From Lampris incognitus (taxonomy: Eukaryota > Chordata > Actinopteri > Lampriformes > Lampridae): DNA of 64,000 bases. The stretch's first letter is position 1, and every line of letters starts with the position of its first letter. The position numbers and the translations under genes were made by a program. Location: assembly GCF_029633865.1 (NCBI RefSeq), contig NC_079230.1:33018650-33082649 (forward strand), in the 5' to 3' direction. Shown piece by piece: positions 5,557 through 55,243 of the stretch. The notes under the pieces were generated by a model. That model was not told where the DNA came from, made no database searches, and was given only the letters and a program-made list of their open reading frames with translations.

Positions 5557-5635
5557 AACACATGGTAATTTCCGACCCCCTAAAATGAAGTGTCACCAAG
5601 AGGATCTATGATAATATTGAGTTATTGCCTTGCCC

Positions 5636-5945
5636 TCCTTCCACCTAACAATGCCGATGGGTGTACTCTCTGACCAAAACCTGAATTTCGACCTACACAC
5701 GAAGAAGCTTGTGCAAACCTGCTTTTTCCAACTCCAGAACATCGCAAAACTCAACCAAAATTACTAATGAATTACTAATCCATACCCAACCTCCTCACGC
5801 CTTCACCACTGCAGTGCTCCTCTCTCCTGCCTCAGCCAGGCTGCCGACCAATCCCAGATCCCACATCACGCCAGTCCTCACCTCCCTTCACTGGCTCTCC
5901 GTGAAGTACAGAATAGACTTCAAGATACTGCTTATCACATAGATG
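5636..5945 (+). mobile_element. CR1/L2-group LINE fragment
   Basis: The plus strand encodes pieces of a LINE C-terminal region: DQNLNFDLHTKKLVQTCFFQ, then after a deletion SHITPVLTSLHWLSVKYRID. This block normally follows the reverse transcriptase in CR1/L2-group LINEs. It is truncated at both ends, internally deleted and non-functional. Confidence 0.65.
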
Positions 5946-14200: not shown

Positions 14201-17200
14201 GGTTGGACCGCCAATCAGTTTTAACCTGTTTCATGGTGTTGAAGCTAGCACACACCTAACGTTAATGCAAGCTAGGTGTCACATACTAGTGCTAGCTGGC
14301 TAATGTTAGCTACAGCCAGCACTTTGTTTACGCTGTATAAGGATATTTTTTATACATTTCTTTCTGATTTCTCCCAATTTAGTAGCCAACTGCCCCTATT
14401 CTAATTCAAACACCACCCTCGTACTGCATGCGTTCGAAAACTGCGTCTCTCCGGCCGGCAGTCTCGAAGGAGATGCCTTGCCACTTTCGTGACAAGGCGA
14501 ATCCAGGCCGAACCACTGCTTTTTCCCACACAGCCAGAGACGCATTTATGTGACGAACACAAGCCGACTTTGCTCCCCTCCCGAAGACGGCGTTGCCAAT
14601 TATTACTGCTTCATCGAATCCGGCCATAGTCGGACCTGACGAGACTGGGGCACGAATCCCGGTCCCCAGTGGGCAACTACATCGACACAAAGCCGATGCT
14701 TATACCGCTACACCACCGCGGACCCTGTATAAGGATATTTTGAGATGACAACTAAATTCACTTACTCGTACATCCATTTGAAGTGGGAGAGTGGTCTGGC
14801 CTTCTTGCCAGTGGCATGCACAGTCCTAAACATGTTCTGCATTCTCATACTGGTCTGCTCAGGCATGGCTATCAGCACCTTTATGGAGGATGTTGCAAGA
14901 ACAGGCTCCAACTGAGCCTGAGAGGTATTCATACAGGTAATGTGACATCTGGAGGTCTCATGTTCCCTGATGTTTTCTACCTTCATTATCTTGTTACCGA
15001 TGACAAATTAATTGCTATGGTTTTTGGCCTCCTGGCGACAGACGGAGCAACTCATTATCACGGCCTGTGTGTTATACTCCAGCCAGCCTCTCGCAGCTCC
15101 TTTATCGTCATACCTCCACTTTTCACTAAACTTTATTTTTTTCGGTTTGGTGGTGATGGTGGCTTCTTTCTCCTCTTTGGGGCATGGTTGTCTTTTTGAT
15201 GGTGTTTTTGTGTCTTCTAAATATGGTGTTGCTCGCTAACATTAGTTAAAAGAATAGAGTAGGCTAGTACTGAGTTTGATGGTGCTGCTGTCGTTGTTCC
15301 TCTCGAGTGTGTGCGTCACGTTACCCGTCAGTAGCGTCTAGCAACATTCTAATGCACTTTGGTTGGTTAGTTTTTGTTATTGTTGTTGTTATGTTATTGT
15401 TCTAATGTGCTTTGGTTGGTTAATTTCTGTTATTGTTATTGCTATGTTATTGCTGTTGCTAAGGAGAGAGCGAGGGAGAGAGAGAGAGCGAGAGAGATGG
15501 GGGGATTAAGTGGTGGGATTTCACTTTTTTTGTTACTTGCCATGTGGCGGATAGGCTTCTGAGATTTACTCACCAATCAGAAAATCTACTCGCATTTGGC
15601 GGGTGGCGAGTGTTAATTTTGGACCCTCGTGGTCTGTAGGATGACTTAGGAGATCAAGAAGAAGAAGAGAGTGAAGGCAGAGCTGAAGATCAAATGGTGG
15701 AAGTTGAAGAAGGAAGACTGTTGTGTGGAGTTCAGGCAGGAGTTAAGACAGGCACTGGGTGGCAGTGAAGAGTTGCCAGATGGCTGGACAACCACTGCAG
15801 AAATAGTGAGGGAGACAGCTAGGAAGGTGCTTGGTGTGTTATCAGGACAGAGGAAGGAAGACAAGGAGACTTGGTGGTGGAATGAGGAAGTACAGCAAAG
15901 TATACAGAGGGAGAGGTTGGCAAAGAAGAAGTGGGATAGTGAGAGAGATGAAGAAAGTAGACAGGAGTACAAGGAGACGCAGCATAAAGCGAAGAGAGAG
16001 GTGGCAAAGGAAAAGGTGTATGGTGAGTTGTATGAGAGGTTAGACACTAAGGAATGGCGGCTGCAAGCCAGTACTTTTCCTAACATCAGCGGCTGCCTAA
16101 TGTTCTTGTGGCTGAATGGGAGTGAATCCCATCAGCCATGTTCCAAAATCAAGTAGAAAGCCTTCCCAGAAGAGTGGAGGCTGTGATCGCAGCAAAAGGG
16201 GGGACCTTGATGCGCCTGGTTTTGGAACAAGATGTTCAACAAGCACATACGGGTGTGATATTTGGGTGTCCACATACTTTTAGCCATGTAGTGTATCGCT
16301 GGCTGAATTGGTATGTGAATAAAATATGACAACTTTCACCAAATATTGTAGGAGATGACATTTTTTGATTAGGGAGTGGAAAGGAATTCATCACTGTACT
16401 GTACATGCCCATGGTGATAAGCACAGCGCCACTGCAAACACCATCTTGTAATGCTCAGTGTGAATGTAAGCCTACCTTGGGTGGTTTTTCCTCCGTAGTG
16501 CTGAATGAGGAACCCAATGGCTACTGTCTGCAGCATGAGGAACAGAGCCTCTCCCCAAGCACTGTGGTAAAGATACACACAAAGGTTTGTCAGAAAAATG
16601 ACACCAGAAGTAATTTGGCTATTATCTGTCAGAACATTCACCACAGTGAATGCACATGCGTGAGGCTTTGTTTTAAAACATATAAACTAGATTAAAATAA
16701 CTAACCCAGCCACAGAGGATGCATAAGCCAGTGCATTTTTAGTGCCGAAACCCAAGCCCAGATAAATGGAGAGGGTTGAACCAGGAAGGACATTTGGTGT
16801 AAAATCTTTGCCAAATCAAGTATGCAGATCATAAATCAGATTTCCATACAGGATCGGTCGAGACCCGGGTTACCAACGACTGCCACCGGTACTGTTGGCC
16901 AGCAGGGTGCCGGTGGAAACTATGACTGTTGGGAGAAGGAGAGGGGGAAGGTATGTGCAGAGGCAGCGGGAAAGGAGGAGGGGGAGGAGTGCGGAGGTGA
17001 GAGTTGGAACTTTGAATGTTGGCACTAAATATAATGTAATGTAAACTAATGGTAAAGGGAGAGAGCTTGCTGATATGATGGACAGAACGAGGGTAGATAT
17101 ACTATGTGTGTAAGAGACCAGGTGGAAGGGGAAAAAGGCCAGGAGTATTAGAGGTGGGTTCAAACTCTTCTACCGTGGTGCGAACAGGAGGAGAAATGGG

Positions 17201-20200
17201 GTAGGGGTAATTCTGAAGAAAGAGTATGTCAAGAGTGTGCTGGAGGTGAAGAGAGTGTCAGACAGAGTGATGAGTATGAAGCTGGAAATCGAAGGTGTGA
17301 TGATGAATGTTATCAGCGCATATGCCCCACAAGTTGGGAGTGAGACGGACGAGAAAGAAGAATTTTGGAGTGAGTTGGACGACGTGGTGGAGAGGGTACC
17401 CGAGGAGGAGAGAGTGGTGATTGGAGCAGACTTCAATGGACATGTTGGTGAAGGGAACAGAGGTGATGGGTAGGTATTGTGTCAAGGAGAGAAATGTGGA
17501 AGGTCAGATGGTGGGGGATTTTGTGAAAAGGATGGACATGGCTGTGGGGAACACATATTTCAAGAAGAGGGAGGAACACAGAATGACATAACAGTGGAGC
17601 ACACAGGTGGACTATATCTTATGTAGGAGGCACCATCTGAAAGGGATTTGAGACTGCAAGGTGGTGACAGGGGAGAATGTAGCTAGGCAGCATCGGATGG
17701 TGGTCTGTAGGATGAGTTTGGAGACCAAGAAGAGGAAGAGAGTGAAGGCAGAGCCGAAGATCAAATGGTGGAAGTTGAAGAAGGAAGACTGTTGTGTGGA
17801 GTTCAGGCAGGAGTTAAGACAGGCACTGGGTGGTAGTGAAGAGTTGCCAGATGGCTGGAAAACCACTGCAGAAATAGTGAGGGAGACAGCTAGGAAGGTA
17901 CTTGGTGTGTCATCAAGCCAGAGGAAGGAAGACAAGGAGACTTGGTGGTGGAATGAGGAAGTACAACAAAGTATACAGAGGAAGAGGTTGTTAAAGAAGA
18001 AGTGTGATAGTCAGAGAGATGAAGAAAGTAGACAGGAGTACAAGGAGACGCAGCGTCAAGTGAAGAGAGAGGTGGTAAAGGCAAAGGAAAAGGCATATGG
18101 TGAGTTGTATGACAGGTTAGACACTAAGGAAGGAGAAAAGGACTTGTACCGATTGGCTAGACAGAGGGACCAAGCTGCAAAGGATGTGCAGCAGGTTAGG
18201 GTGATCAAGGATAGAGATGGAAATGTGCTGACAAGCGAGGAGAGTGTGCTGAGAAGGTGGAAGGAATACTTTGAGGGGCTGATGAATGAAGAAAATGAGA
18301 GAGAGAGAAGGTTGGATGATGTAGGGATAGTGAATCAGGAAGTTCAGCGGATTAGCAAGGAGGAAGTGAGGGCAGCTATGAAGAGGATGAAGAGTAAAAG
18401 GCAGCTGTTCCTGATGACATACCTGTGGAGGCATGGAGGTGTTTAGGAGAGATGGCAGTGGGGTTTTTAACTAGATTGTTTAACACAAACTTGGAAAGTG
18501 AGAGGATGCCTGAGGAGTGGAGAAGAAGCATACTGGTACCGATTTTCAAGAACAAGGGTGATGTGCAGAACTGTAACAACTACAGAGGTATAAAGTTGAT
18601 CAGCCACAGCATGAAGATTTGGGAAAGAGTAATAGAAGCTAGGTTAAGAGGAGAGGTGATGATCAGCGAGCAGCAGTATGGTTTCATGCCATGAAAGAGC
18701 ACCACAGATGCGATGTTTGCTTTGAGAATGTTGATGGAGAAGTATAGAGAAGGCCAGAAGGAGGTACATTGTGTCTTTGTGGATTTAGAGAAACATACGA
18801 CAGGGTGCCGAGAGAGGAGGTGTGGTATTGTATGAGGAAGTCGGGAGTAGCAGAGAAGTATGTAGGAGTGGTGCAGGATATGTATGAGGGAAGTGTGACA
18901 GCGGTGAGGTGTGCGGTTGGAATGACAGATGGGTTCAAGGTGGAGGTGGGATTACATCAAGGATCGGCTCTGAGCCCTTTCTTGTTTGCAATGGTGATGG
19001 ACAGGTTGACGGACAAGATCAGGCAGGAGTCTCTGTGGACTACGATGTTCGTGGACGACATTGTGATCTGTAGTAAGAGTAGGGTGCAGGTTGAGGAGAG
19101 CCCGGAGAGGTGGAGGTATGCACTGGAGAGAAGAGGAATGAAAGTCAGTAGGAGCAAGATGGAATACCTATGCGTGAATGAGAGGGAGGACAGTGGAATG
19201 GTGAAGATACAAGGAGTAGAGGTGATGAAGGCATTTGAGTTTAAATACTTGGGGTCAACTGTCCAAAGTAACAGGGAGTGCAGGAGAGAGGTGAAGAAGA
19301 GAGTGCAGGCAGGGTGGAGTGGGTGGAGAAGAGTGTCAGGAGTGATGTGTGACAGAAGGGTGCCAGCAAGAGTTAAAGGGAAGGTTTACAAGATGGTTGT
19401 GAGACCAGCTATGTTGTATGGTTTGGAGACAGTGGCACTGACGAAAAGACAGGAGGTGGAGCTGGAGGTGGCAGAGATGAAGATGATAAGATTTTCACTG
19501 GGAGTGATGAAGAAGGACAGGATTAGGAACGATTATACTAGAGGGACCGCTCAGGTTGGACGGTTTGGAGACAAAGCAAGAGAGACAAGATGGAGATGGT
19601 TTGGACATGTGTGGGGGAGAGATGCTGGGTATACTGGGAGAAGGATGCTGAATATGGAGCTGCCAGGGAAGAGGAGAAGAGGAAGGCCAAAGAGGAGGTT
19701 TATAGATGTGGTGAGGGAGGACATGCAGGTGGCTGGTGTGACAGAGGAAGATGCAGAGGACAGGAAGAGATGGAAACGGATGATCTGCTGCGGTGACCCC
19801 TAACAGGAGCAGCCGAAATTGGTAGTGGTCAACACTAGATTAAAATAACTGTAAGAAAATGTTTAAACCAGCAGTGGGGTTTCCATCAAGCCAGTTTATG
19901 CAGAATTTTGAATTTGAAAAGGCTGAATGGAAATGGTAAAAAAACAAAAACAAAACACAAAACCACAAAAAAGTTTTAATGCTCACTTGAAGTGGCTTTT
20001 GCTTTTGTTAATGAATAGTTTATACGCTAAATGACCGATGGAAACGCTGTTGCCGAATAACAAATAAAATGTGAATAGAATTGAATCACATGTTCAGCTC
20101 GTTCCTAAAGGGTAAATTCACTGATTTTCAACTGTATTTCTGTCTATGCGACAGGGACAGCACATGAAAAACACCTGCAGTGTTCCCAATCCTTTCTGCT

Positions 20201-37606: not shown

Positions 37607-37609
<3 letters not shown>

Positions 37610-38092
37610 GCGTCAGGAAGGGCACATCCGGCGTAAAATCTTTGCCAAATCAAATATGCGGATCATAAATCAGATTTCCATACCGGATCGGTCGAGGCCC
37701 GGGTTACCAACGACCGCCACCGGTACTGTTAACCAGCAGGGTGCCGATGGAAATTATGCTACTGTTGGGCAAAGGAGAAGGAGAGGCGGAAGGCATGTAT
37801 CAGAGGGACAGCTCAGGTGGGACGGTTTGGAGACAAAGCAAGAGAGACAAGATGGAGATGGTTTGGACATGTGTGGAGGAGAGATGCTGGGTATACTGGG
37901 AGAAGGATGCTGAATATGGAGCTGCCAGGGAAGAGGAGAAGAGGAAGGCCAAAGAGGAGATTTATGGATGTGGTGAGGGAGGACATGCAGGTGGCTGGTG
38001 TGACAGAGGAAGACGCAGAAGACAGGAAGAGATGGAAACGGATCATCTGATGTGGCGCCCCCTAACGGCAGCAGCCGAAATTAGTAGTAGAT
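37607..38092 (+). mobile_element. Internally deleted RTE derivative
   Basis: The first 190 bp match the RTE 5' region (GTCAGGAAGGGCACATCCGG, GATCGGTCGAGGCCCGGGTT). They then join directly to the last 300 bp (GGACAGCTCAGGTGGGACGG through CCCCTAACGGCAGCAGCCGA). Endonuclease and reverse transcriptase are gone. The layout is that of a non-autonomous element using RTE ends. Confidence 0.85.
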
Positions 38093-40423: not shown

Positions 40424-41628
40424 CATGTGAGAGAAGAGAACAGTTTGCAATCGTCAATAATCTATACTCTATAATCTCGTCAGTAGAACAGTGGTTGGTA
40501 AATTCATTGAGACAGAAACCGACCTACCATGCAGTAAAGGTTGTGAAGCACTCAACTTAAAGACAACTAATTGTAGGCTAAGACAAAAAGATGAGTTTTA
40601 AGTTTGGATTTAAAGGACTGAACAGACTCTGATGGTCTGATGGCAGCAGGCAGGTTGTTCCACAGGAATGGGGCCGATAGGAAAAGGCCCTGCTGCCACC
40701 AGCTGACTTCTTTTAACTTTGGGTACACACAGGAGCCCTGTATTTTGAGAGTGAAGAGCTCGAGATGGAATGTACGGTTTAAAGCAATCAGACAGGTAAT
40801 ATGGGGCAAGCCTATTTAGCTCATCTAGAAGTCCGACAGGAAGCCAATGAAAGGAGGCAAAAATTGGTGTAATATGGTCAAATTTCTTAGATTCAGTTAG
40901 GATTCGAGCAGCAGCATTCTGAGCCATCTGAAGACTTTCAGTACTAGAATGTGGCAGACCTGAAAATACAACATTACAGGAATCAAGTCTGGATGAAACA
41001 AATGCATGTATTAGAGTCTCTGCATCAGCCATGGACAGGAAAGACCGGGTTTTAGCTATACTCAAATGAAATAAGGCATTGTTGGTGATTCCTTTAATGT
41101 GCTTATCAAAGGAAAGGCTGGGAGTAAACGTAACACCAAGATTTTGGCTGCTACACTTTGTGAAATCACAGAGTTGTTGATTGTTATCTTTAATTGATCA
41201 AATTGGTATCTGTGATAAAAACCCCTGCATCTCGGTTTTTCCGAATTTAAAAGTAGAAAGTTAAGTGACATCCGATTTTTCACAGCAGCCAAGCAGGCCT
41301 CTGAATTGATCAGTTATATGACCATCAGCCCTGATAAGCACATACAGCTGAGTAGCATCAGCATAGCAATGGCATTGTATTCCATAACTGCGTATAATTT
41401 GGCCAAGAGTTGAAATATAAAGAGAGAAAAGTAGAGGGCCAAGAACTGAGCCCTGAGGTACGCCATATTTAACATCAGAGAGTTTCGATGTAATATTACT
41501 ACATCAGACACGATGTGTTTTTCCAGATAAGTAGGACTTAAGCCAAGAGAGAGCTAAGCCAGAAACACCAAAATTACAATTTATTCTGTCCAATAGTATA
41601 CAGTGATCAGTGATCAGTGATCGATGGG

Positions 41629-42072
41629 CTGACTTAACCCGCTTTCGGAGGGCCTCGACCGGCCGGCTTTGCCGGCGTTCGGGTGGCCGCTTCCTTCGGT
41701 CTTGCGGAGTTCACCCAAGGGCGGCAACAACGACATGACTCTGGGCGTCGTCGGCTGCGCGGTGGGGTCCCCCATCTCCGGTGCTACTCTGGGAACCATG
41801 AAACAAAGCGCGGTGCGGGGCGGCTCGCCCTGACGTCCCCTCCGTGCACCTCCGGGTACCCGATGGTTACTTTTTTCTTCTTTTACGCGTGCGGGTCGGG
41901 GTTTCCGTGAGCGCTGAGAGAGCTGCTGTCGGTGTCTCCGAGGCGCGCAAAGAGCAAAGGCAGCTGCCATGAGATGTGCGTCAGCCCGTCAGCCTCGCAC
42001 GGACGCCATCCATGATTGGACTATGACCTCAGATCAGACGAGACAACCCGCTGAATTTAAGCCCATTACTAA
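41629..42072 (+). rRNA. ITS2 / 28S rRNA 5'-end fragment (not a working gene)
   Basis: GACCTCAGATCAGACGAGAC followed by AACCCGCTGAATTTAAGC (42025-42062) is the universally conserved start of 28S rRNA, with small changes (AAGCCCATTACT in place of AAGCATATTACT). The GC-rich 400 bp before it has the composition and position of ITS2. The conserved continuation ACTAAGCGGAGG is found at 45208-45219, on the far side of the RTE copy. It is a fragment moved away from the rDNA array. Confidence 0.85.
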
Positions 42073-45000
42073 CCCAGCCGCTGAGGATGCACAAGCCAGT
42101 GCATCCTTAGTGCCGGTCCCAAGCCCGGACAAATGGGGAGGGTTGCGTCAGGAAGGGCATCCGGCGTAAAATCTTTGCCAAATCAAATATGCGGATCATA
42201 AATAAGACTTACATACCGGATCGGTCGAGGCCCGGGTTAACAACGACCGCCACCGGTACTGATAACCAGCAGGGTGTCGGTGGAAACTATGCTACTGTTG
42301 GGCGAAGGAGAAGGAGAGGGGGAAAGCATGTCCAGAGGCAGCTAGAGAGGAGGAAGGGTAGGCATGTGGAGGTGAGAGTTGGAACTTTGAATGTTGGCAC
42401 TATGACTGGTAAAGGGAGAGAGCTGGCTGACATGATGGAAAGAAGAAAGGTAGGCATACTGTGTGTGCAAGAGACCAGGTGGAAGGGGAGTAAGGCCAGG
42501 AGTATCGGAGGTGGCTTCAAACTCTTCTACCATGGTGTGAATGGGAGGAGTAAAGGGGTAGGGGTAATTCTGAAGGAAGAGTATGTCAAGAGCGTGCTGG
42601 AGGTGAAGAGAGTGTCAGACAGAGTGATGAGTATGAAGCTGGAAATTGAAGGTTTATTGCTGAATGTTATCAGCGCATATGCCCCGCAAGTTGGGTGTGA
42701 GATGGATGAAAAAGAAGAATTCTGGAATGAGTTGGACGACATGGTGGAGAGGGTACCCAAGGAGGAGAGAGTGGTGATTGGAGCCGACTTCAATGGACAT
42801 GTTGGTGAAGGGAACAGAGGTGATGAGGAGGTGATGGGAAGGTATGGAGTCAAGAAGAGAAATGTGGAAGGACAGATGGTGGTGGATTTTGCGAAAAGGA
42901 TGGAAATGGCTGTGGTGAATACATATTTCAAGAAGAGGGAGGAACACAGGGTGACGTACAAGAGTGGAGGAAAGTGCACACAGGTGGACTATATCTTATG
43001 TAGAAGGCGCCATCTAAAAGGGATTGGAGACTGCAAGGTGGTGACAGGGGAGAACGTAGCTAGGCAGCATCGGATGGTGGTCTGTAGGATGACTTTAGAG
43101 ACCAAGAAGAGAAAGCGAGTGAAGACACAGCCGAAGATCAAATGGTGGAAGTTGAAGAAGGAAGACTGTTGTGTGGAGTTCAGGCAGGAGTTAAGACAGG
43201 CACTGGGTGGTAGTGAAGAGTTGCCAGATGGCTGGAAAACCACTGCAGAAATAGTGAGGGAGACAGCTAGGAAGGTACTTGGTGTGTCATCAGGACAGAG
43301 GAAGGAAGACAAGGAGACTTGGTGGTGGAATGAGGAAGTACAGCAAATTATATAGAGGAAAAGGTTGGCAAAGAAGAAGTGGGATAGTAAGAGAGATGAA
43401 GAAAGTAGACAGGAGTACAAGGAGATGCAGCGTAAAGCAAAGAGAGAGGTGGCAAAGGCAAAGGAAAAGGCGTATGGTGAGTTGTATGACAGATTAGACA
43501 CTAAGGAAGGAGAAAAGGACTTGTACCGATTGGCTAGACAGAGGGACCAAGCTGCAAAGGATGTGCAGCAAGTTAGGGCGATCAAGGATAGAGATGGAAA
43601 TGTGCTGACAAGCGAGGAGAGTGTGCTAAGAAGGTGGAAGGAATACTTTGAGGGGCTGATGAATGAAGAAAATGAGAGAGAGAGAAGGTTGGATGATGTA
43701 GGGATAGTGAATCAGGAAGTTCAGCGGATTAGCAAGGAGGAAGTGAGGGCTGCTATGAAGAGGATGAAGAGTGGAAAGGCAGTTGGTCCTGATGACATAC
43801 CTGTGGAGGCATGGAGATGTTTAGGAGAGATGGCAGTGGAGTTTTTAACTAGATTGTTTAACACAATCCTGGAAAGTGAGAGGATGCCAGAGGAGTGGAG
43901 AAGAAGCATACTGGTACCGATTTTCAAGAACAAGGGAGATGTGCAGAACTGTAACAACTACAGAGGTATAAAGTTGATCAGCCACAGCATGAAGATTTGG
44001 GAAAGAGTAATAGAAGCTAGGTTAAGAGGAGAGGTGACGATCAGCGAGCAGCAGTATGGTTTCATGCCACGAAAGAGCACCACAGATGCGATGTTTGCTT
44101 TGAGAATGTTGATTGAGAAGTATAGAGAAGGCCAGAAAGAGTTGCATTGTGTCTTTGTAGATTTAGAGAAAGCTTATGACAGAGTGCCGAGAGAGGAGGT
44201 GTGGTATTGTATGAGGAAGTCAGGAGTTGCAGAGAAGTATGTAGGAGTGGTGCAGGATACGTATGAGGGAAGTGTGACAATGGTGAGGTGTGCGGTTGGA
44301 ATGACAGATGGGTTCAAGGTGGAGGTGGGATTACATCAAGGATCGGCTCTTAGCCCTTTCTTGTTTGCAATGGTGATGGACAGGTTGACGGACAAGATCA
44401 GGCAGGAGTCTCCATGGACGATGATGTTCGCGGATGACATTGTGATCTGTAGCGAGAGTAGGGTACAGGTTGAGGAGAGCCTGGAGAGGTGGAGGTATGC
44501 ACTGGAGAGAAGAGGAATGAAAGTCAGTAGGAGCAAGACGGAATACCTATGCGTGAATGAGAGAGAGGACAGTGGAATGGTCATGATGCAAGGAGTGGAG
44601 GTGACAAAGACATCTGAGTTTAAATACTTGGGGTCAACTGTCCAAAGTAACGGGGAGTGCAGTAGAGAGGTGAAAAAGAGAGTGCAGGCAGGTTGGAGTG
44701 GGTGGAGAAGAGTGTCAGGAGTGATTTGCGACAGAAGGGTATCAGCAAGAGTTAAAGGGAAAGTTTACAAGATGGTTGTGAGACCAGCTATGTTATATGG
44801 TTTGGAGACAGTGGCACTGACGAAAAGACAGGAGGCGGAGCTGGAGGTGGCAGAGTTGAAGATGCTAAGATTTTCACTGGGAGTAACGAAGAAGGACAGG
44901 ATTAGGAACGATTATATTAGAGGGACCGCTCAGGTTGGACGGTTTGGAGACAAAGCAAGAGAGGCAAGATTGAGATGGCTTGGACATGTGTGGAGGAGAG

Positions 45001-45207
45001 ATGCTGAGTATATTGGGAGAAGGATGCTGAATATGGAGCTGCCAGGGAAGAGGAGAAGAGGAAGGCCAAAGAGGAGGTTTATGGATGTAGTGAGGGAAGA
45101 CATGCAGGTGGCTGGTGTGACAGAGGAAGACGCAGAAGACAGGAAGAAATGGAAAGGGATGATCCGCTGTGGCGACCCCTAACGGGAGCAGCCGAAAGTA
45201 GTAGTAG
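42073..45207 (+). mobile_element. RTE-clade LINE copy C, intact but for one stop
   Basis: One frame runs from Met 42189 to the stop at 45182 (about 996 sense codons), broken only by TAG at 43353-43355; copy A has CAG at the matching codon. Endonuclease motifs: [46 protein letters not shown]. Reverse transcriptase motifs: [44 protein letters not shown] (catalytic FADD). A C-terminal LRWLGHVWRRDAEYIG and basic RRRGRPKRR block follow. RTE elements have a single APE-RT protein of about this length. The start lies 116 bp into the element. The flanks ACTAA (42068-42072 and 45208-45212) suggest a short target duplication within 28S sequence. It is the youngest-looking RTE in the window. Confidence 0.93.
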
Positions 45208-45219
45208 ACTAAGCGGAGG

Positions 45220-45437
45220 TCCATGAATACTGGGATGGCATCCAGCGCTTTACCTGTGCCCCCGTCCATAGGGTTAGTGGTTGTGTCAGGAAGGGCATCC
45301 GACGTAAAATTTTGCCAGATCATTATGCGGATTGACAAGACCGCCATCGGTGTTGCGCCCTCACAGGGTACCGATGGAAACTGTCGATTCCGCTGTGGCG
45401 ACCCCTGGGAAACAGGGAACAAGCCGAAAGAAGAAGA
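45220..45437 (+). mobile_element. Non-autonomous RTE-type tail (SINE-like)
   Basis: GTCAGGAAGGGCATCCGACG, GTACCGATGGAAACTGTCG and CCGCTGTGGCGACCCCTGGG match pieces of the RTE 5' region joined to the RTE 3' end, finishing AAGCCGAAAGAAGAAGAAG. The first 60 bp (GGGATGGCATCCAGCGCTTT) have no match elsewhere in the window. Confidence 0.7.
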
Positions 45438-45497
45438 AGTATACAGTGATCAGTGGTGTCAAAGGCTGTACTTAGGTCCAGTACTAGAAATTGTGTA

Positions 45498-55171: not shown

Positions 55172-55243
55172 TGACCCCGACGTGATTTGAACACGCACCC
55201 TTCTGATCTGGAGTCAGACGCGCTACCGTTGCGCCACGAGGTC
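55172..55243 (-). tRNA. tRNA-Trp (CCA)
   Basis: The 72-nt minus-strand sequence folds as a standard cloverleaf: acceptor GACCTCG/CGGGGTC with one G-U, discriminator A, D stem GCGC/GCGC around AACGGTA, anticodon stem TCTGA/TCAGA around CTCCAGA (anticodon CCA), T stem GCGTG/CACGT around TTCAAAT. Internal promoters are visible: TGGCGCAACGGTAGC (A box) and GTTCAAATCA (B box). It matches vertebrate tRNA-Trp except for minor changes, for example AGGGT in the variable region. A T-run terminator is about 60 bases downstream (AAAA on the plus strand near 55112). No intron. Confidence 0.95.

What the first reader, a model, noticed from the sequence alone, without database searches (positions are those of the whole stretch)
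41595..45455. Ribosomal-DNA-headed retro-insertion containing a nearly intact RTE
Seen: an 18-bp direct repeat AGTATACAGTGATCAGTG brackets a 3.8-kb unit inserted in an L2 LINE. The unit starts with ITS2 plus the first bases of 28S rRNA and ends with a short RTE-type tail and AAGAAGAAG. The 28S sequence ...TTACT/AAGCGGAGG is itself interrupted by an RTE LINE. Inference: an rRNA-derived transcript fused to an RTE-type 3' end was retrotransposed as one unit, and the RTE either entered it later or had inserted into an rDNA repeat before transcription. Pol I transcript parts heading an RTE-mobilised unit would be an unusual SINE-like element.
Basis: partly seen in the sequence, partly recalled or inferred. 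Interest (0 to 1): 0.85.

Follow-up and report, generated by a model that had tools for sequence, protein, structure and literature searches.

The report
Jumping element headed by pre-rRNA
The window holds one copy of a young, dispersed family of small jumping elements, in what looks like a fish genome, whose front part is a shortened ribosomal RNA precursor fused to the tail of an ordinary retroelement; in this copy a larger retroelement later landed inside it.

Summary
The 18-bp repeat is the target duplication of one retro-insertion into another LINE. The 3.1-kb RTE is a later passenger: 18 of 18 other short copies compared lack it. Without it the unit is a 680-bp element, and the window copy differs from the family consensus by 0.44%.

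The head is not just ITS2 plus 28S. Against this genome's rDNA it is the first ~91 nt of the 5' external spacer, a piece of ITS1, the end of ITS2 and about the first 56 nt of 28S. Longer relatives keep 5.8S.

The genome has 24 matches to the head's first bases and 64 to the 28S/body join. The body belongs to a headless RTE-related parent with 604 matching 5' ends.

Best reading: one founding template jump (or RNA ligation) from the parent RNA to a deleted pre-rRNA, then amplification as a lineage. The fixed start suggests the Pol I start point, but that is inferred and no source gene was found. SINE28, the nearest known family, uses the other end of 28S.

The parts
41595..41612 (.). 5' copy of the 18-bp target site duplication
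   Evidence: identical to 45438-45455; excision restores the host frame
41613..41617 (+). five extra bases ATCAG between the duplication and the element; with the next two bases they repeat the end of the duplication
   Evidence: sequence; other copies start at 41618 equivalent
41618..41708 (+). head, start of the 5' external transcribed spacer
   Evidence: 87% to L028 1972-2062; first bases have 24 genome matches
41716..41863 (+). head, piece of ITS1
   Evidence: 84% to L028 5306-5456, upstream of 5.8S
41901..42072 (+). head, end of ITS2 and, from about 42024, the first 49 nt of 28S
   Evidence: 83% to L028 5943-6108 together with 45213-45219
42073..45207 (+). nested RTE LINE, one in-frame stop, with 5-bp duplication ACTAA (42068-42072 and 45208-45212)
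   Evidence: absent from 18 of 18 other short copies
45208..45219 (+). second ACTAA and the rest of the 28S piece, ...AAGCGGAGG; the 28S/body join follows 45219
   Evidence: 64 genome matches to the join, 50 exact, control 0
45220..45437 (+). RTE-related body and (AAG)n tail, shared with the parent element
   Evidence: two stretches match the window RTE at 89% and 77-78%; parent copies L059-L063
45438..45455 (.). 3' copy of the 18-bp target site duplication

Best explanation
SHOWN: 41595-45455 is one member of a dispersed, recently active family of non-autonomous retroelements, with a later RTE insertion inside it. The element begins at the first base of a 5'ETS match, runs through an internally deleted pre-rRNA to about nt 56 of 28S, and continues as the body and (AAG)n tail of an RTE-related parent whose own first 22 nt are missing. 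INFERRED, fairly likely: the founder arose during target-primed reverse transcription of a parent RNA; the reverse transcriptase stopped at the parent's 5' hairpin (the join lies one base past its GCAA loop) and jumped to a deleted pre-rRNA, copying it to its 5' end. Ligation of the two RNAs beforehand is an equal alternative. The fusion then amplified as a lineage, using an RTE-type enzyme in trans. INFERRED, weaker: the common first base is the Pol I start point, and source copies lie behind a Pol I promoter, in rDNA or in a deleted rDNA unit.
For: Dispersal: 24 head starts, 64 joins, 25 ETS/ITS1 joins, control 0 in each; 19 independent insertions with duplications of 16-20 bp. Youth: 18 other short copies are 0.29-1.62% from a consensus of 19, the window copy 0.44%. 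rDNA origin. Start set by the head: heads of about 450 and 950 nt and a two-headed copy of 1.6 kb begin at the same base (within 2 nt in L051), so a promoter at a fixed distance in the body is unlikely. One lineage: at body site 169, 28 of 28 headed or truncated bodies differ from 5 of 5 parents; at site 172, 27 of 28 do. The join lies at the parent's predicted 5' hairpin. Head and body share direction, which PMC13174262 (passages) reads as ligation or template switching in 28S/LINE-1 chimeras. Jumping is also visible in L009 and L019, where a second head precedes the first.
Against: No source copy was found: none of the 64 joins lies on rDNA contigs C43, C289 or C528, though parts of the rDNA read N. 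The readable rDNA differs from the heads by 13-20% outside 5.8S, so the donor rDNA was not seen. The Pol I start point of this species was not found in papers (listing); I infer it from the alignment. Head variants L041 and L026, and the upstream heads of L009 and L019, show that switching continued after founding, so one founder is a simplification. One of 28 headed or truncated bodies has the parental base at site 172. Only 5 of at least 604 parents were compared, and they were the closest hits. The partner LINE with an (AAG)n tail was not searched for; the window RTE ends in (TAG)n.
Confidence: 0.68

Rival explanations
1. Self-standing SINE-like family: each dispersed copy carries its own internal promoter (Pol III or Pol II) in the head, so copies breed copies.
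For: Lineage pattern and low divergence. The headless parent also has a fixed start without an rDNA head.
Against: A simple scan of the 680-bp consensus found no GGTTCGANNCC within 2 mismatches; the looser GWTCRANNC gave 3 one-mismatch hits and the A box 3, in no usual pairing by my reading. T4 runs at 254, 264 and 553 lie inside the element. A motif scan cannot exclude a promoter.
Confidence: 0.25
2. Repeated formation: each copy is a separate jump from a parent RNA to pre-rRNA at a favoured spot, as with U6/LINE-1 chimeras, with no breeding lineage.
For: Joins to rRNA recur near 28S nt 50-62 (L009, L019, C481), and head variants share one body join (L026, L041).
Against: 50 of 64 joins are exact and none of the 64 has more than 2 mismatches (a limit set by the search); headed bodies share bases that 5 of 5 parents lack; short heads are 98-99% alike but 13-17% from the readable rDNA.
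Confidence: 0.1
3. The RTE first inserted into an rDNA unit and was then carried as part of the rRNA transcript.
For: The RTE lies within the 28S piece.
Against: 18 of 18 other short copies lack the RTE at that point; the window copy without it is a normal member.
Confidence: 0.02
4. Mis-joined rDNA contig or plain rDNA pseudogene spread by DNA duplication.
For: Some copies are in duplicated DNA (three on C2; L033-L036).
Against: 19 independent insertions with different target duplications; the host frame is restored at the window site. No reads were available to test assembly.
Confidence: 0.02

Closest known systems
SINE28 (Longo et al. 2015; not held, seen as a citation in PMC13174262 and in passages of PMC8010984 and PMC3576234)
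   Same: Short retroposed family with a head from the large-subunit rRNA gene.
   Different: PMC8010984 says SINE28 derives from the 3' end of 28S and places it in mammals. Here the head is 5'ETS, ITS1, ITS2 (5.8S in long forms) and the 5' end of 28S, with an RTE-related body.
[quoted passage not shown]
   Same: 28S fragment upstream of a LINE-type 3' part, mostly in sense, one insertion event with target duplication.
   Different: Those are 18 human loci without a breeding family reported in the passages I saw, mostly from inside 28S; here one join recurs 64 times and the head starts in the 5'ETS.
R2 SIDEs and R2 template jumps to U12 or tRNA (PMC3414825, passages)
   Same: Non-autonomous elements, template jump at the 5' end, one jump proposed to have founded a subfamily; Pol I cotranscription.
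   Different: R2 SIDEs sit in 28S genes and use a ribozyme; this family is dispersed, RTE-related, and no ribozyme was found.
RTE-derived SINEs with RTE middle body and tail (Kojima 2018; not held, cited in PMC13174262)
   Same: Body and tail resemble parts of an RTE.
   Different: Per PMC13174262 the heads there are tRNA or 5S rRNA; here pre-rRNA.

Membership tests
SINE (strict sense) | internal Pol III promoter in the head | tested here: inconclusive
   No convincing A/B box pair, internal T4 runs; motif scan only. I call it SINE-like, not a SINE.
SINE (strict sense) | short, non-coding, dispersed, many copies with target duplications | tested here: met
   680 bp; 64 joins; 19 independent insertions with duplications. 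Coding potential of the consensus was not tested beyond the window ORF list.
SINE (strict sense) | 3' tail matching a partner LINE | tested here: inconclusive
   Tail matches the window RTE end at 77-78% over about 65 bp; the actual partner with an (AAG)n tail was not searched for.
SINE28 | head from the 3' end of 28S | tested here: not met
   Head matches 5'ETS, ITS1, ITS2 and the 5' end of 28S; definition from PMC8010984 (passage).
28S/LINE chimera by template switch or ligation | rRNA fragment 5' of the LINE-type part, same direction, one pair of target duplications around both | tested here: met
R2-type SIDE | insertion at a fixed site in 28S genes | tested here: not met
   All 64 joins are on contigs C1-C27 with varied flanks where fetched
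R2-type SIDE | HDV-like ribozyme at the 5' end | tested here: not met
   No ribozyme in the window head (one twister-P1 match at E 8.4, far below its cut-off) or in the parent copy L060
Pol I-transcribed element | RNA starting at the Pol I start point | not testable with these tools
   Fixed first base matches the rDNA 5'ETS region; no RNA data
RTE clade (nested LINE) | single ORF with endonuclease and reverse transcriptase, no long poly-A | tested here: met
PF03372 and PF00078 in one frame broken by one stop; tail (TAG)n.

The most novel reading that the evidence does not exclude
A retroelement family that lives off RNA polymerase I: its source copies sit in deleted rDNA units, its RNAs start at the Pol I start point, and the dispersed copies are dead offspring. 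New heads are picked up when the RTE-type enzyme jumps to pre-rRNA fragments ending near 28S nt 50-62. This would be a Pol I counterpart of the Pol III-driven SINEs.
Probability: 0.4. Interest if true: 0.78.

Novelty: new variant of a known kind. Interest (0 to 1): 0.64.

Why it matters
SINEs are usually explained by the Pol III promoter they carry. A young family headed by a deleted rRNA precursor, starting at one base in the 5'ETS, makes it testable whether Pol I transcripts can feed retrotransposition. Its short, long, two-headed and 18S-bearing copies record how such heads are built. It also warns that dispersed 5.8S and ITS matches in such genomes can be mobile elements, which matters for rDNA-based typing and for annotation.

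Tried and rejected
Rfam on the window found no rRNA; the pieces are short, so this is not evidence against rRNA. My notes put the join at 28S nt 48; counted from the Rfam match it is about nt 56. I noted four combinations of an ITS2 deletion and a 28S variant as recombination and dropped the claim, because L024 shows a like deletion arising on its own. A search with the long head found no rDNA closer than 83% over more than 100 bases outside family copies, with 40 of 394 candidates scored. Loose Rfam searches gave no ribozyme for the parent copy L060. The Pol I start point in fish was searched in papers without a usable result (listing). Paper searches for an rRNA-spacer-headed SINE (listings) showed none, but most subscription papers are not held and three key papers could not be read.
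Full report
Observation. The window carries AGTATACAGTGATCAGTG at 41595-41612 and 45438-45455. Removing the insert and one repeat copy restores a continuous minus-strand frame resembling an L2-type reverse transcriptase (RVT_1 in the adjoining piece, nothing in the 46 residues across the join; the L2 name is recalled). Between the repeats lie a head that ends in 28S sequence, a 3.1-kb RTE that interrupts it, and a 218-bp body with an (AAG)n tail. The RTE has one in-frame stop and a short duplication, ACTAA. A second nearly full-length copy of the same RTE lies at 16705-19826, 92% identical.

The family. The window lies on contig C26 of an unnamed 1.48-Gb genome; that it is a fish is my inference. 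The head as query gave 50 matches, with 40 of 351 candidates scored. I fetched 20 stretches. In 18 of 18 short copies in them the head runs straight into the body with no RTE between. These 18 differ from a consensus of 19 (the window copy included) by 0.29-1.62%; the window copy without its RTE differs by 0.44%. Counting three tandem copies on C2 once, the 17 independent copies differ pairwise by 1.43% on average (range 0.59-3.12%).

Target duplications. Of the 20 elements examined, 17 show exact duplications of 16-20 bp at once. L009 and L019 carry a second head upstream and have theirs outside it (16 bp; 17 bp with one mismatch). L026 shows 10 bp. With the C2 trio counted once, L009, L019, L051 (16 bp) and the window (18 bp), I count 19 independent insertions with duplications of 16 bp or more. 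In the 17 the duplication ends within two bases of the first base TGATCG; L051 has two extra bases and the window five.

Genome counts. First 23 bases of the element: 24 matches at up to 2 mismatches, control 0. By comparison are short forms and 5 long forms; two of the 24 (C5:49396069 and C25:22850471) are inner starts in two-headed copies, and three on C2 are one duplicated insertion. The 28S/body join: 64 matches, 50 exact, control 0. The ETS/ITS1 join: 25 matches, control 0, by position the same 24 plus L026. All listed places of these three searches are on contigs C1-C27.

What the head is. Contig C43 (L028) holds an rDNA unit with 5.8S at 5597-5750 and a 28S start. Consensus 1-91 matches the 5' spacer start (87%), 99-246 part of ITS1 (84%), and 284-462 the end of ITS2 and the start of 28S (83%). 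So 18S, 5.8S and most of the spacers are missing. Long forms (L027, L051, L065 and the first unit of L009) keep ITS1, 5.8S and ITS2. Their 5.8S differs from that of C43 at 3 (L009), 3 (L027) and 1 (L051) of 154 bases; the more decayed L032, L041 and L044 differ at 6 of 145, at 9 plus 7 gap positions of 154, and at 4 of 104. The donor rDNA was thus close to functional in 5.8S but 13-20% different from C43 elsewhere. No closer rDNA was found (both with only the 40 best candidates scored); parts of the rDNA read N, so absence is not shown.

The parent. Five other body copies, on C5, C13, C14, C16 and C17, begin TGG(C/T)GACAGGCATGGACGCAAG followed by the same body, about 240 bp, with duplications of 15-21 bp in 4 of 5 (L062 lies in a simple repeat). 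This 5' end has 604 matches at up to 2 mismatches, control 0. The headed family lacks exactly those first 22 bases, that is the 5' arm, the loop and one more base of a predicted hairpin, and has rRNA in their place. Headed or truncated bodies carry T at body site 169 in 28 of 28 against C in 5 of 5 parents, and C at site 172 in 27 of 28 against T in 5 of 5 parents. These 33 bodies are a part of at least 64 joins and 604 parents; the parents are those closest to the query.

Mechanism. The simplest account is a reverse transcriptase that stalls at the parent's hairpin and jumps onto a deleted pre-rRNA; RNA ligation gives the same product. PMC13174262 (passages) reports 18 28S/LINE-1 chimeras, 83% in sense, and names the same two routes. 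PMC3414825 (passages) reports R2 jumps to U12 and tRNA and proposes that one jump founded a subfamily. Further jumping is visible here: in L009 and L019 an upstream rRNA head ending in 28S ...GGAGGAAAAG is joined to the element's first base (the only two exact genome matches). An older, diverged stretch on C481 seems to join 28S ...ACTAAG to the same first base (the first bases are aligned by eye). These joining points fall at about 28S nt 50-62. L026 contains a piece of 18S, and L041 has a different ETS/ITS1 junction by eye.

Amplification. Heads of different length share one first base, so the start belongs to the head. In L028 that base is preceded by spacer sequence that the copies lack, as expected if it is the Pol I start point. 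This is inference: no mapped start was found in papers, and no source copy was seen in rDNA. A self-carried promoter remains possible, although a scan found no convincing Pol III boxes.

Known or new. SINE28, per PMC8010984 (passages), derives from the 3' end of 28S; this head does not meet that definition. The paper searches (listings) showed no SINE headed by 5'ETS or ITS. Longo 2015 and two Kojima papers could not be read. I rate it a new variant of a known kind: an rRNA-headed, RTE-related SINE-like family with a possible Pol I link.

Noticed in passing
L066 (C481); similar matches on C37, C41, C524 and C289: Older, diverged concatemers of rRNA pieces on unplaced contigs, in which a 28S start seems joined directly to a 5'ETS start.
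   Followed up: partly
L026 3474-5457 (C27): A 2-kb relative whose head includes about 550 nt of 18S, the end of 5.8S and some 400 nt of unidentified sequence.
   Followed up: partly
28S nt ~37-42 in L026, L032, L041, L051, L056, L058: The same few 28S bases vary between copies (GCACATT, GCATATT, GCCCATT, GATTATT, GCCAATT), perhaps a spot of reverse-transcription error or switching.
   Followed up: no
L024 and the long forms, ITS2 part of the head: Deletions of about 33-34 nt between AGAG repeats look recurrent.
   Followed up: partly
window 16705-19826: Second nearly full-length RTE copy with a 17-bp duplication ACTAGATTAAAATAACT.
   Followed up: partly
window 37607-38090: Internally deleted RTE copy, 5' part joined to 3' part.
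   Followed up: no
L033-L036 (C7 and three places on C6): One 5'-truncated family insertion in near-identical flanks at four places, so the flanks were probably duplicated after insertion.
   Followed up: no
L028 from about 6510: The 28S of this rDNA unit is broken off by an inverted-repeat-like insert and GAAGAG repeats, so it is not an intact gene.
   Followed up: no
G000 C26:18526870, C24:43194901: Other dispersed 5.8S matches (91% and 87%) not explained by this family.
   Followed up: no
window 55172-55243, minus strand: tRNA match above the Rfam cut-off.
   Followed up: no
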